Shown in pieces: positions 13,812 to 17,262 of a stretch of DNA of 64,000 nucleotides; position 1 is the first letter of the stretch; each line of letters begins with the position of its first letter. Location: NCBI GenBank assembly GCA_937891465.1, contig CALAHF010000019.1, forward strand, positions 55,683-119,682, given 5' to 3'. Under the pieces are notes generated by a model. The model worked only from the letters and a program-made list of their open reading frames with translations, had not been told where the DNA came from and ran no database searches. Position numbers and translations under genes: made by a program. Source of the DNA: an uncultured Verrucomicrobiales bacterium (GTDB lineage: Bacteria; Verrucomicrobiota; Verrucomicrobiia; Verrucomicrobiales; DEV007).

Positions 13812-15545
13812 TCACTGCTTTCCAGCTGCCGCAGCCCGGGCCGCGTCTTTGTCAAAAAACGATCCCATTCGCACTCGTAAATCACCGTAAAAAGTGTCAG
13901 CCATTTCCTCGAGCATTTCAGCTCGTTTGGAAATTTTTTCGGATTGTGCGGCGGCAAGATGCTCTCGCTCGACGTCGACACGATCTTGAAATTCAGAATC
14001 CAAATCCATCAGGTTTTCGATAAACGCTTTGGCTGATTTAGTCTGATCGATTCCTTCGATCAAAGCGCGCTCAAGCGGTTTATTTTGGGTGAGGTGCAGC
14101 AGCTTCCCATCGGAAAGCTCATCCATGTATTCGTTGTAGCTGCTGAGAAATGCCTCGCGCTCGCGTGCGAAGCGGACTTCTTCGCAATCAACCAGCGTGT
14201 CGTATGGCCCCGGTTTCGAGAAAAACTTCACAACCAATGGGATCGTATCGACCAGCATGAAAAGCGCGGCAAGAATGAGATAGGCCCACAAAGCGAACTC
14301 ACCACCTTCAGCTCCGTTTTCAAACATGCGATGAAGCGCCAGGGTTTGGGTAAGCAAATCGCGACGCGGCTCTTCTTTGATGCCATCAATCCGATCCTGC
14401 TCCTGCGTTCCGATGGAAGCTAACTCGCCCTGCAAGCGATTCATTTCAGTCAAACGAGAATCAATCTGCGTCGTAATCGTTGATCGAATCGAGTTTTGCT
14501 GCACCACAAATTGATCCGCCTGCTGGCTTTGAACTTGCTGCTTCAAAACAGCTACCCGGGCACGCTCTTCTTTTTGGCGATCCGCCCGATCTGCTGCGAT
14601 GAGCATGAATTCATCCAAAATGGCATCTTCTGTCGCCTTCACTTGTCCACGCAATTCGTTCCGCTGCTCCGTCAAATAAGCGAGCATTTCGCCCGTTCGC
14701 TTAGCTTCTTCACGGCGCCACGCAAGTTGGTCATCGCGAATGCTCCGCGCTCGAGGCCCCAGACCCACAATTCCAGAACGTTGCCCATTCACTTCATTTT
14801 CAAACTGAGTCTGCCAATCATTCAATTCGCCCTGCAATTTCGCATAGCTCGCCGTCAGCTTGGTGTCTTCAGCATCGATCGACGCAATTTTTGCAACAAA
14901 GGCCGCCGTATCCGTTTTTACCCGTTCATCGTGTTGCGCTTTTAAATCGGGATCCAGATCTGCTGTGGGATCGGGCTCATTGATTGAAGTGTCTTCCACC
15001 AAAAACTCCGCACGGAAAGTATCATCAAATTTTTGTCGCTGAGCCGAGATATCCGTCTCAAGTGCTGCAATTTTGTCCTCGACCTCTTTTTTATCGATCG
15101 TCGCTAAGTCACGAACGCCTGCCAATTCCGTTTCACGCTCTTCTTCGACTACTGAAGAAATTGTGTCATTAAAAAGCAACAACGTCAGTGGGTGCGAAAT
15201 CGTCAGCCCCATTAACACGGCAACAAAGATTCGCAGGAAAAACTGACTCATTTTCCGGGAGAATCCCTGAAACGACCGATAGGTGGCCAGCAACGCCCGG
15301 TCGATCGTGAGAATGATAAATCCCCACGCAAGTGAAACCGGAAGGATAACTTTCCAGCTATCAGTAATCGTCGACAGGGCATACGCGCATGCGATAAAGG
15401 CAAATACAGTTGGCACTAAGACGGTTGCACCAAATGCGACGTATTTCCGCTGCTCCCAGGTAGGGCATTGCTCGAGCGTTTCCGTGCCCGCGCCGGATAG
15501 CCAAAAGAAAAATTGCTTAGATCTGCTACGCTTCGGTGGATTCAT
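13812..15545 (-). CDS. DUF4407 membrane protein with long periplasmic/cytoplasmic coiled coil
   Basis: 577 aa. The N-terminus (FFFWLSGAGTETLEQCPTWE followed by RKYVAFGATVLV) is the DUF4407 signature. Three membrane helices lie at about 36-58, 66-82 and 103-125, then a Glu/Lys/Arg-rich coiled coil at about 140-390, a fourth helix at about 418-440 (LWAYLILAALFMLVDTIPLV), and a second short coiled coil to the end. The function of the family is unknown; it is widespread in Bacteroidetes and PVC genomes. It is monocistronic as far as the sequence shows. Confidence 0.85.
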   Translation of the reverse strand: MNPPKRSRSKQFFFWLSGAGTETLEQCPTWEQRKYVAFGATVLVPTVFAFIACAYALSTITDSWKVILPVSLAWGFIILTIDRALLATYRSFQGFSRKMSQFFLRIFVAVLMGLTISHPLTLLLFNDTISSVVEEERETELAGVRDLATIDKKEVEDKIAALETDISAQRQKFDDTFRAEFLVEDTSINEPDPTADLDPDLKAQHDERVKTDTAAFVAKIASIDAEDTKLTASYAKLQGELNDWQTQFENEVNGQRSGIVGLGPRARSIRDDQLAWRREEAKRTGEMLAYLTEQRNELRGQVKATEDAILDEFMLIAADRADRQKEERARVAVLKQQVQSQQADQFVVQQNSIRSTITTQIDSRLTEMNRLQGELASIGTQEQDRIDGIKEEPRRDLLTQTLALHRMFENGAEGGEFALWAYLILAALFMLVDTIPLVVKFFSKPGPYDTLVDCEEVRFAREREAFLSSYNEYMDELSDGKLLHLTQNKPLERALIEGIDQTKSAKAFIENLMDLDSEFQDRVDVEREHLAAAQSEKISKRAEMLEEMADTFYGDLRVRMGSFFDKDAARAAAAGKQ

Positions 15546-15770
15546 TGGAAATGAGAAGGTTAAGGATGAATGAAAGAAACAATTCCTTCACCTAAATCTT
15601 TAGGGAATCCTGATTGTTTGTAAATCCTCAATTTTTCTAGCCCATACGGGCCAACACAACCATGAAGTAGATCCATACCGGCGCGCCAGACGTAGATCTT
15701 GCAAAGTTGTGCCTCCCATATTCGAGGCATTGACTTTAACTAAAAAACACGGCTTAATTGTCATGTTGAT

Positions 15771-16091
15771 ATGAAAAAACTAATTGCAACTATTACCCTG
15801 GCGCTCCTCGCTTTCGCACCTGCTGCGATGGCTGAAGACGTAACCTACACGGCCGGCATGACCGGCGTCACATGAGGCGGATGTAAAAAGGATGTCAGTT
15901 CGGCATTCGAAAAACTTTCCGGCTTTAAAAATATTAAAATCGAAAAAGGCGATGCTGCTGGAACTCAGAAAGTAACTGTGATTACTGATGGTTCTGCGGA
16001 AATCACCAAAGAACAGGCCGTTGAAAGCCTCGGAAAGAAAGCTGCTCGCTACGTCGTTAAGACATGGGGCAAAGCTGACGCCAAAAGCTGA
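15771..16091 (+). CDS. Predicted selenoprotein: exported HMA-like protein with UxxC motif (in-frame TGA = Sec35)
   Basis: 106 aa if the TGA at 15873-15875 is read as selenocysteine. Residues 1-21 are a clean signal peptide (MKKLIATITLALLAFAPAAMA). The mature part, TYTAGMTGVT-U-GGCKKDV, has the layout of MerP/HMA-type proteins, in which CxxC binds metal; here the first Cys is Sec and the second is Cys38. After the TGA the frame stays open for 71 codons with the expected HMA sequence (SSAFEKLSGFKNIKIEKG, QKVTVITD, KEQAVESLGKKAARYVVKTW), so this is not a decayed tail. A hairpin with SECIS geometry follows the TGA, and a terminator follows the stop. SelA, SelB, SelC and SelD genes are not in the window and must exist elsewhere. 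The alternative is a recent nonsense mutation or a sequencing error of TGT/TGC to TGA. Confidence 0.82.
15890..15908 (+). promoter_or_regulatory. Candidate bacterial SECIS hairpin of the HMA-like selenoprotein
   Basis: Fourteen nt after the in-frame TGA the mRNA can form GGAUGUC (15890-15896), loop AGUUC (15897-15901), GGCAUUC (15902-15908): 7 pairs, of which two are G-U. The loop has G at position 2 and begins 21 nt after the TGA. This fits the bacterial SECIS consensus of a short upper stem, a G in the first two loop positions and an apical loop about 16-37 nt from the UGA. Confidence 0.7.
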
Positions 16092-16137
16092 ATTCATTCA
16101 GTTTTAGTGAAATAACTTTCTACTAAAAGATTCAACA

Positions 16138-16180
16138 AAGAAAGCCGCAGTGGATTCGTCCGCTGCGGCTTTTTCTTTGG
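16138..16180 (+). terminator. Intrinsic terminator after the HMA-like selenoprotein gene
   Basis: AAAGCCGCAG and CTGCGGCTTT form a 10-bp stem around a short loop and are followed by a T-rich run. It starts 47 bp after the stop codon. Confidence 0.85.
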
Positions 16181-16227
16181 ATAAAATGAGGAATGTGAGG
16201 AATTGAAATGTTTTAATTTTTCTTGCA

Positions 16228-16330
16228 GGAAAACCGCCCTCTGGTCGGTTCGCAGAGTCAAGATGAGAGCTATGAAAGGTTGTTCAAAACCCCGCTTGTG
16301 CTGCGCAAACCGGCCAGAGGACGGTTCTCC
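16228..16330. repeat. Long imperfect inverted repeat between the two selenoprotein genes
   Basis: The arms 16228-16253 and 16305-16330 (26 nt each) are complementary at 22 positions and enclose a 51-nt loop. As minus-strand RNA three of the four differences become G-U pairs, leaving one A-C mismatch; as plus-strand RNA three are true mismatches. A T6 run follows the right arm on the + strand. It could be a structured RNA, a terminator-like element or a MITE-like relic. Confidence 0.6.
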
Positions 16331-16453
16331 TTTTTTAATTTCACAATGTTTTGTTCAGAAATATAAACTCCAGAGTCGTTCTGCTCTGCTTGAAAAGCCC
16401 CGCAATTCCTGCCTAAAACGCAAGGCTGCGGCTCCGCTGAAATGGCCTTACAC

Positions 16454-16493
16454 AAAAAAGCCGCACCGAACTTAAACGTCCGATGCGGCTTTT
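16454..16493 (-). terminator. Intrinsic terminator after the thioredoxin-like selenoprotein gene
   Basis: On the minus strand AAAAGCCGCA and TGCGGCTTTTTT pair around a loop and end in a U run, 31 bp after the stop at 16525. The stem resembles the terminator of the convergent HMA-like gene. Confidence 0.8.
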
Positions 16494-16524
16494 GAGAATT
16501 GTTTCGCGAGAAAAACGTTGCCGT

Positions 16525-17262
16525 TTACTCGCTGGCAGCTTCAGGCGTAGCCGCCTTCTTGATCAACTCTTGATCCGCTTCCGAGAGCTTGGTGACGTCA
16601 TATTCAAACTTCCGGCCATTTGGAAATTTAAAGTGGCCCGTTGTCCCAACAACTTCGACCAGGGCAGCTTCAATTGCTTTCCCTTCGGAATTCGTCCAAC
16701 TGCGATTCGCAATCAGGTCAGCTTTCCGCGGAGCCAGGCCAGTGCTGCTTGCACCCAAATCCATTGGAGCCGTCGCGTCTTTCAACGCAGATTTAATAGC
16801 TTTTTCAGTCTCATCTGCCATTGGATGACCGACATAAATCAGTTTTCCAGACACATCAAAAACTGCAGTGCGGGGAATCCCGTTTCCGAGCCTTGGCCCG
16901 GAAATACTTTTTGTCACGGTGTATCCAATTTTATTCTTATCGACGAGTTTCTTAATATCTTCTTCCGAACTCCCCTGAACTTCAGGAGCTACAACGACGA
17001 GACCTTTTTTACTCAACTTCTTTTCCATCTGAACCAGATGGGGCATTGCTGCTAAGCAAGGGCCTCACCGGGTTCCCCAATATTCGATCGTAACGACCTT
17101 TCCTTCCAGCTTCGAAAGATCGACTTCCGCACCTGAAATATGATTGCCGAGTTTGAACTCGGACAAGTTGTGATCAGGAACTGAATCCTGACCAACCGCC
17201 GTGATTCCACCAAACGCGAGGCAAAATGCGGCACCTGGTCCAAACAGAATTTTTTTCTTCAT
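16525..17262 (-). CDS. Predicted selenoprotein: exported TlpA/thioredoxin-like protein with UGPC active site and SHD1-like domain
   Basis: 245 aa if the TGA at 17065-17067 is Sec66. The start is the ATG at 17262, 7 nt after an AGGA; an in-frame GTG lies two codons upstream. There is a signal peptide up to about residue 24. The thioredoxin fold is unmistakable: VVTIEYWGTR-U-GPC-LAAMPHL, where WCGPC is expected, then LVVVAPEVQG, the cis-Pro loop GNGIPRTAVFD, and KLIYVGHP. Residues about 175-240 (NRSWTNSEGKAIEAALVEV, PNGRKFEYDVTKLSEADQEL) resemble the SHD1 domain common in PVC bacteria. A perfect 7-bp hairpin follows the TGA at SECIS distance. Without readthrough the gene would give a 65-aa stub and a tail lacking the redox centre. 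It likely acts as a periplasmic thiol/selenol oxidoreductase. Confidence 0.88.
17025..17041 (-). promoter_or_regulatory. Candidate bacterial SECIS hairpin of the thioredoxin-like selenoprotein
   Basis: Twenty-three nt after the in-frame TGA lies CCAUCUG-GUU-CAGAUGG, a perfect 7-bp stem whose 3-nt loop begins with G. The loop begins 30 nt after the UGA. Stem, loop length, G position and distance all fit the bacterial SECIS consensus. Confidence 0.8.

What the first reader, a model, noticed from the sequence alone, without database searches (positions are those of the whole stretch)
15771..16091. A new-looking selenoprotein: exported HMA-like protein with Sec in a UxxC motif
Seen: one in-frame TGA at 15873 at exactly the first Cys position of the expected metal/redox CxxC, coding sequence continuing for 71 codons, and a 7-pair hairpin with a G in the second loop position 21 nt after the TGA. 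Known: bacterial SECIS elements have this geometry, and Sec commonly replaces the first Cys of CxxC. Inference: a periplasmic selenol protein for metal capture or redox chemistry. It is invisible to standard gene callers, which would report a 34-residue stub or an antisense frame.
Basis: partly seen in the sequence, partly recalled or inferred. Interest (0 to 1): 0.93.

Follow-up and report, generated by a model that had tools for sequence, protein, structure and literature searches.

The report
Selenocysteine-armed exported metal-binding protein
A small bacterial gene with a stop codon in its middle, found in the same form in dozens of Verrucomicrobia, likely makes a secreted protein that would hold a metal ion with the rare selenium amino acid selenocysteine.

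Summary
An in-frame TGA (15873-15875) stands at the first Cys of an HMA-domain CxxC; 71 codons follow, with a 7-bp hairpin whose loop starts 21 nt downstream. In 111 homologue rows read, this codon is TGA (59) or TGC/TGT (52), never anything else. In 67 Sec-form sites from two orders of Verrucomicrobiia, four core hairpin pairs are all standard in 66, with compensatory changes, and loop position 2 is G in 67; in 36 Cys forms 0 and 1. The genome has SelA, SelB, SelD and a contig-cut tRNA-Sec. Of 53 genomes with the TGA form, 52 match selA, 49 over the cut-off. In relatives the gene is divergent from mnmH (18 of 23 in two genera) or follows a ZnuA-like protein (7 of 7 in another). Sec insertion is near certain; soft-metal binding by Sec-x-x-Cys is inferred from fold and context. 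HMA selenoproteins (MerP, UxxU) are catalogued, but this gene scores far below both NCBIfam models and I saw no such entry in a 2026 inventory of 119 families: a new variant of a known kind. A second likely selenoprotein gene (TlpA-like, UGPC) lies 440 bp away.

The parts
15771..16091 (+). Gene of the HMA-domain selenoprotein, 106 residues with Sec at 35, plus stop
   Evidence: Pfam HMA 29.2 bits; homologues with the same architecture
15771..15836 (+). Predicted signal peptide (about residues 1-22)
   Evidence: Read by eye from the sequence (MKKLIATITLALLAFAPAAMA); no signal-peptide program was run; low model confidence there
15873..15875 (+). In-frame TGA, read as selenocysteine 35
   Evidence: TGA or Cys codon in 111 of 111 homologue rows read
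15882..15884 (+). TGT, the second residue (Cys38) of the Sec-x-x-Cys site
   Evidence: TGC/TGT in 111 of 111 rows
15890..15908 (+). SECIS hairpin: stem 15890-15896 with 15902-15908, loop AGUUC 15897-15901
   Evidence: Fold; covariation
16525..17262 (-). Convergent neighbour: TlpA/redoxin-like gene with its own in-frame TGA (WGTR-U-GPC), likely a second selenoprotein
   Evidence: TGA in 21 of the 24 genomes of the family with a match, 74 searched; 12 of 12 loci read have WGTR-U-GPC
17065..17067 (-). In-frame TGA of the TlpA-like neighbour
17025..17041 (-). Hairpin CCAUCUG-GUU-CAGAUGG after the neighbour's TGA, likely its SECIS
   Evidence: z -1.94, 10 of 200 shuffles as good

Best explanation
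This gene encodes a small, predicted exported protein of the heavy-metal-associated (HMA) fold whose in-frame TGA very likely inserts selenocysteine, giving a Sec-x-x-Cys loop that would bind a soft metal ion outside the cytoplasm. Shown by sequence: the TGA/Cys-codon exchange at one position, the covarying SECIS hairpin, the Sec machinery in the genome, and the HMA assignment. Inferred: SelB with Sec-tRNA(Sec) decodes the UGA; the first 21-22 residues direct export; the selenolate of Sec35 and the thiolate of Cys38 together hold a soft ion such as Cu(I), Ag(I), Cd(II) or Hg(II), probably tighter than the Cys pair of the Prosthecobacter relatives; the protein then stores the ion or hands it on. 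In close relatives the gene is divergent from mnmH and sometimes near selD, selA and a predicted selenate transporter, so its expression is probably tied to selenium use. My split: Sec insertion 0.97, export 0.9, metal binding as the main job about 0.55.
Confidence: 0.6

Rival explanations
1. Same selenoprotein, but redox rather than metal capture: the UxxC cycles between selenol/thiol and selenenylsulfide outside the cytoplasm, perhaps with the TlpA-like Sec protein encoded next to it as electron partner.
For: UxxC is the commonest redox motif among catalogued selenoproteins (PMC13188914 table). The TlpA-like gene with UGPC is 440 bp away, convergent; 18 of the 21 genomes with the TGA form of TlpA are among the 53 with the HMA TGA form.
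Against: The HMA fold is not a thioredoxin fold and its relatives bind metals. The two genes are adjacent only in the window among the 56 loci, and many HMA-Sec genomes of genus g2 have no TlpA match.
Confidence: 0.25
2. The protein serves selenium economy itself: an exported Sec-bearing carrier, store or sensor of selenium, made only when selenium is plentiful.
For: Divergent from mnmH, with a NifS-type desulfurase next in 17 of 18; selD, selA and a TIGR04553 protein ('putative selenate ABC transporter substrate-binding protein') within 2.8-14.4 kb in 6 loci. Two proteins carry two HMA-Sec domains.
Against: Cys versions exist in genomes without selA, which a selenium carrier would not need; the metal-site geometry of the HMA domain is kept; in most other genera no selenium gene was found next to it.
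Confidence: 0.12
3. The TGA is an ordinary stop, a sequencing error or a disabled gene.
For: Standard frame calling ends at residue 34.
Against: The same TGA in 58 distinct genes of the order and 7 genomes of another order; protein-like codon change behind it; hairpin covariation; coupling to selA.
Confidence: 0.01
4. TGA is read as tryptophan.
For: P0002 and P0003, predicted proteins in the database, carry W there, probably from a prediction under another code (my inference).
Against: Of 111 rows read none has TGG at this position, the alternatives are Cys codons; P0002 also runs through the terminal TGA; 11 of 24 long open frames (350 aa or more, by a mechanical scan) in the window end in TGA.
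Confidence: 0.01

Closest known systems
MerP, mercury resistance periplasmic binding protein (NCBIfam TIGR02052)
   Same: Small, leader plus one HMA domain; the match runs from residue 1 to 73; MerP is among the solved relatives
   Different: 25.8 bits against a cut-off of 92.55; Sec in place of the first Cys; no mer gene was noticed in the neighbourhoods, which were not searched for them
UxxU metal-binding (seleno)protein NF041115, listed as 'putative mercuric reductase' in reviews
   Same: HMA-like stretch with Sec at the first position of the CxxC
   Different: 19.4 bits against a cut-off of 95; two Sec (UxxU) there, one (UxxC) here
Mercuric transport protein MerP selenoprotein of the GOS metagenome (two sequences, PMC2398784 table 2)
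   Same: Named MerP and Sec-containing
   Different: Sequences, motif and organism were not available to me; a comparison was not possible
Cation-transporting P-type ATPase with UxxC (TIGR01525, in the PMC13188914 table)
   Same: UxxC in a metal-transport family
   Different: A large membrane pump, here a free exported domain
Copper chaperone CopZ / Atx1 HMA domains
   Same: Predicted fold and CxxC place
   Different: 21.6 and 21.5 bits against 91 and 85; leader and Sec here
Cys orthologues in Prosthecobacter and relatives, annotated 'heavy-metal-associated domain-containing protein'
   Same: Same length, leader and domain; the 14 Cys proteins of family f4 are nested in the Sec forms in the tree
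   Different: CAGC and similar in place of U-x-x-C; no SECIS core in the 36 Cys forms tested

Membership tests
Bacterial selenoprotein | In-frame TGA aligned with Cys codons of homologues | tested here: met
   59 TGA and 52 TGC/TGT rows of 111
Bacterial selenoprotein | bSECIS: loop of 3-9 nt, stem of 4-16 bp, G in the first two loop positions, 16-37 nt from TGA to loop, energy at most -7.5 kcal/mol (PMC13188914) | tested here: met
   Loop 5, stem 7, G at loop position 2, 21 nt, -17.1 kcal/mol for the 53-nt stretch; covariation. bSECISearch itself was not run
Bacterial selenoprotein | SelA, SelB, SelD and tRNA-Sec in the genome | tested here: met
   496, 283 and 278 bits, all over cut-off; tRNA-Sec 51 bits, gathering score 47, cut at its 3' side by a contig end; ARAGORN did not report it
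Bacterial selenoprotein | Selenium in the protein | not testable with these tools
   Needs 75Se labelling or mass spectrometry
HMA domain (PF00403) | Pfam gathering score | tested here: met
   29.2 bits, cut-off 24.8, with C for Sec
HMA domain (PF00403) | Ferredoxin-like beta-alpha-beta-beta-alpha-beta fold with the CxxC before helix 1 | tested here: met
   Model of mean pLDDT 85.9, strands and helices in that order, residue 35 just before helix 36-46; HMA domains top the fold list, mixed with unrelated folds at like Z
HMA domain (PF00403) | Metal binding | not testable with these tools
   Needs purified protein
MerP (TIGR02052) | Score above the curated cut-off 92.55 | tested here: not met
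   25.8 bits
UxxU metal-binding selenoprotein (NF041115) | Score above the curated cut-off 95 | tested here: not met
   19.4 bits
Copper chaperone CopZ (NF033795, NF047957) | Score above the curated cut-offs 91 and 85 | tested here: not met
   21.6 and 21.5 bits

The most novel reading that the evidence does not exclude
An old family of exported metal-binding proteins, spanning two orders of Verrucomicrobiia, uses selenocysteine as a metal ligand rather than as a redox centre, is wired into the cell's selenium economy, and exists even as double-domain proteins with two Sec; selenium supply would then set how much soft metal (mercury, copper) the cell can catch outside the cytoplasm.
Probability: 0.35. 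Interest if true: 0.82.

Novelty: new variant of a known kind. Interest (0 to 1): 0.7.

Why it matters
Most selenoproteins of known function are redox enzymes. A widespread exported HMA protein with Sec would be a case where Sec may serve as a metal ligand, and one small soluble domain makes that directly testable. The natural Sec and Cys forms (TGA genes beside the Prosthecobacter Cys proteins and the Cys form of G129) offer a ready comparison of selenolate and thiolate metal sites. Normal gene calling cuts the gene to a 34-residue stub, so the family is probably missed in many Verrucomicrobia genomes (inference). The covariation at synonymous third positions makes this a very clear example of a bacterial SECIS.

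Tried and rejected
Rejected: sequencing error or pseudogene, and Trp reading (see rivals). Rejected: membership in MerP, CopZ or NF041115, by score.

Led nowhere or against: Rfam over the whole window gave nothing at gathering score; ARAGORN found no tRNA in the window and did not report the cut tRNA-Sec in L009, which the covariance model did. The scan of named genomes used a pattern with a Cys codon at the Sec position, so it could not find TGA forms; its 2 loci lie on contigs of the same lengths as G129:C16 and G054:C40, both Cys forms. The database search with the read-through protein found only 4 proteins: two with W, two truncated pieces. TIGR03167 in the window's own genome gave three partial mnmH pieces, all under the cut-off and all at contig ends. 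Phylum search with the single sequence: 11 of 387 genomes matched, the two outside the order weakly and without TGA; the profile search over 384 genomes of the class then gave 27 with matches, 7 of them (family f86, another order) with the TGA form. A promoter and terminator scan of 15500-16600 found 1 and 2 sites against 0.9 and 1.5 in shuffles.

Papers, what I saw: PMC13188914 outline, section 5, section 7 parts 1 and 2 of 3, and passages; PMC2398784 passages with table 2; PMC9312934 passages; PMC4807772 passages; PMC1794560, PMC5322559 and PMC5029168 term look-ups without hits; the others only as listings. That I found no such family in print rests on searches of an open-licence library and on the table of PMC13188914; subscription papers and supplements were not searched.

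Limits of the counts: I read 110 loci fetched after (111 rows), not every match of that call; further listed rows without internal stops and the unlisted weaker rows were not read. L035 and L051 hold the same gene. 36 of the 52 Cys rows went into. In one search a genome counts as TGA form only if such a locus was read; of the 52 selA matches, 49 are over the cut-off, G121 and G196 are partial, and that of G214 (18.9 bits) is probably not selA, though G214 and G196 have selB over the cut-off. L051 was not among the loci.

Full report
OBSERVATION. The frame 15771-16091 reads MKKLIATITLALLAFAPAAMAEDVTYTAGMTGVT-U-GGCKKDVSSAFEKLSGFKNIKIEKGDAAGTQKVTVITDGSAEITKEQAVESLGKKAARYVVKTWGKADAKS, with TGA at 15873-15875 and a terminal TGA at 16089-16091. 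Standard calling would end it at 34 residues; a 105-aa antisense frame exists. The hairpin GGAUGUC-AGUUC-GGCAUUC (15890-15908) starts 14 nt and its loop 21 nt after the TGA; the 53-nt stretch folds at -17.1 kcal/mol, z -2.97, 3 of 200 shuffles as good. It meets the published bSECIS constraints (PMC13188914 section 5).

HOMOLOGUES. A search of 288 genomes of the order found matches in 141. I read 110 fetched loci, 111 rows: at the Sec position 59 rows have TGA (58 distinct genes), 52 have TGC or TGT, none anything else, and the second Cys codon is TGC/TGT in all 111. Base differences after the TGA fall at codon positions 37/35/125 over 3 close pairs and, beyond the hairpin, 830/652/1781 over 55 pairs, as in translated sequence. 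A profile search over 384 genomes of the class found 7 genomes of another order (family f86) whose proteins read GATU[GA][GS]C..., with TGA and hairpin in the same register. A single-sequence search over 387 genomes of the phylum gave 11 with matches, the two outside the order weak and without TGA. Names: the window's family f1 holds G054, whose contig has the length of DDTJ01000059.1 (Akkermansiaceae bacterium UBA2367), and family f4 holds G037, whose contig has the length of that of P0044 (Prosthecobacter vanneervenii, order Verrucomicrobiales).

SECIS. Counting from the T of the TGA as 0, over 67 Sec-form sites (58 from the order, 7 from f86, and the second domains of two double proteins): pair 20-32 is C-G 52, U-A 12, U-G 1, A-U 1, G-C 1; pair 19-33 is A-U 51, G-U 5, G-C 5, U-A 4, C-G 1, broken 1; pair 21-31 is G-C 67; pair 23-29 is C-G 63, U-A 4. 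Bases 20 and 32 are both codon third positions, so much of this change is silent in the protein. Four core pairs are all standard in 66 of 67 Sec forms and in 0 of 36 Cys forms; loop position 2 is G in 67 of 67 and in 1 of 36. On 53 distinct sequences, 23 cells changed on both sides against 6.1 in shuffles (0 of 500 as high), and sliding the partner by 1 to 3 columns lowers pairing from 87.9% to 35-42%. Against: in the same call, pairs with a double change (4 against 2.5) and further pair types (10 against 8.0) were reached by 48 and 35 of 500 shuffles; the outer two pairs form in only 39 and 45 of 67; RNAalifold's consensus is weak, -0.23 kcal/mol; and my crude single-hairpin scan found nothing in 10 of 58 Sec forms, though 41 of 58 reached -7 kcal/mol against 5 of 36 Cys forms.

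MACHINERY. The window's genome (5.97 Mb, 229 contigs) has selA at 496 bits, selB 283, selD 278, in a 749-codon frame, and a tRNA-Sec at 51 bits (gathering score 47), cut at its 3' side by a contig end, with UCA as the anticodon by my reading of the alignment. Of the 288 genomes 95 match selA, 91 over the cut-off. Of 53 genomes with the TGA form, 52 match selA and 49 are over the cut-off; G121 and G196 are partial, G214's match is probably spurious, and G224 (53% complete) has none; G214 and G196 have selB at 328 and 294 bits, G224 none over the cut-off. Of 33 genomes where only Cys forms were read, 4 match selA. Sixteen genomes hold both forms.

EVOLUTION. A tree of 94 proteins needs only 3 changes between Sec and Cys (shuffled mean 29.1), with the 14 Cys proteins of family f4 nested in the Sec forms; most of the other Cys proteins (21 rows, family f1) form a separate branch of paralogues, and the Cys form of G129 sits on a long branch. 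The rooting is by midpoint and many forks are unresolved (109 columns). My reading: Sec is old in this clade and was exchanged for Cys in lineages without the Sec machinery. G023 and G158 have proteins with two HMA-Sec domains, each TGA with its own hairpin (the contig of G158 ends in the second domain), and L052 (G023) has an extra C-terminal part.

CONTEXT. One search examined 57 loci, 56 distinct. mnmH (tRNA 2-selenouridine synthase; 446 and 430 bits in the two tested) lies divergently 112-216 bp upstream in 18, all among the 23 loci of genera g1 and g2; a NifS-type desulfurase follows in 17 of the 18. In 6 loci selD, selA and a protein of TIGR04553 ('putative selenate ABC transporter substrate-binding protein'; 255 bits in the one tested, cut-off 250) lie 2.8-14.4 kb off. 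In genus g7 a ZnuA/AdcA-like metal-binding protein (best 73 bits, far under its cut-off) lies 152-227 bp upstream in the same direction in 7 of 7. For the remaining loci neither was found; some of those contigs are short. In the window neither is adjacent; instead a TlpA-like gene with its own TGA converges at 440 bp.

MECHANISM. I read the protein as an exported HMA domain whose Sec35 and Cys38 bind a soft metal (inferred from the fold, from the known metal sites of its relatives, and from the general chemistry of selenolates, recalled). The selenium neighbours suggest shared regulation with selenium use (inferred); the ZnuA-like neighbour in g7 suggests metal handling (inferred). A redox role cannot be excluded.

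NOVELTY. The 2026 inventory (119 families and subfamilies, PMC13188914 table 1) lists a MerT-type protein, a UxxC P-type ATPase and the UxxU NF041115 protein; I saw no exported UxxC HMA (PF00403) family in it. The 2008 GOS table lists two MerP selenoprotein sequences, which I could not compare. Hence a new variant of a known kind, with unusual breadth and a very clear SECIS.

Noticed in passing
16525-17262 (minus strand): TlpA/redoxin-like gene with WGTR-U-GPC, TGA at 17065-17067 and a hairpin CCAUCUG-GUU-CAGAUGG behind it; 21 of 24 genomes with a match (74 of the family searched) have one TGA inside, and 12 of 12 loci read have WGTR-U-GPC. UxxC proteins of this kind are already catalogued. 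A weak SHD1 match lies at its C-terminus (17.5 bits, cut-off 23.7).
   Followed up: partly
L051 (G023) and L024 (G158): Proteins with two HMA-Sec domains in tandem, each TGA with its own hairpin; the contig of G158 ends inside the second domain.
   Followed up: partly
L137, L138, L139, L141, L147, L148: Selenium gene clusters: mnmH, NifS-type desulfurase, selD, selA and a TIGR04553-type binding protein within about 15 kb of the HMA-Sec gene.
   Followed up: partly
G000:C172:12-557, G000:C224:4277-4816, G000:C166:131543-131935 (L198-L200): Three partial mnmH pieces in the window's own genome, all at contig ends and under the cut-off, so mnmH is probably broken by the assembly.
   Followed up: no
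L018 (G000:C43): selD lies within a 749-codon open frame, so it may be a fusion with another enzyme.
   Followed up: no
L052 (G023:C126): HMA-Sec protein of 183 residues with an extra C-terminal part that by eye resembles the SHD1-like end of the TlpA-like neighbour.
   Followed up: no
L090 (G000:C160): The window's genome also holds a Cys paralogue (KLTGVECTACKK), on a separate branch of the tree.
   Followed up: no
16144-16174: By eye, an inverted repeat AGCCGCAG...CTGCGGCT followed by T's, a likely terminator for the HMA gene; the scanner does not take loops this long and did not list it.
   Followed up: no
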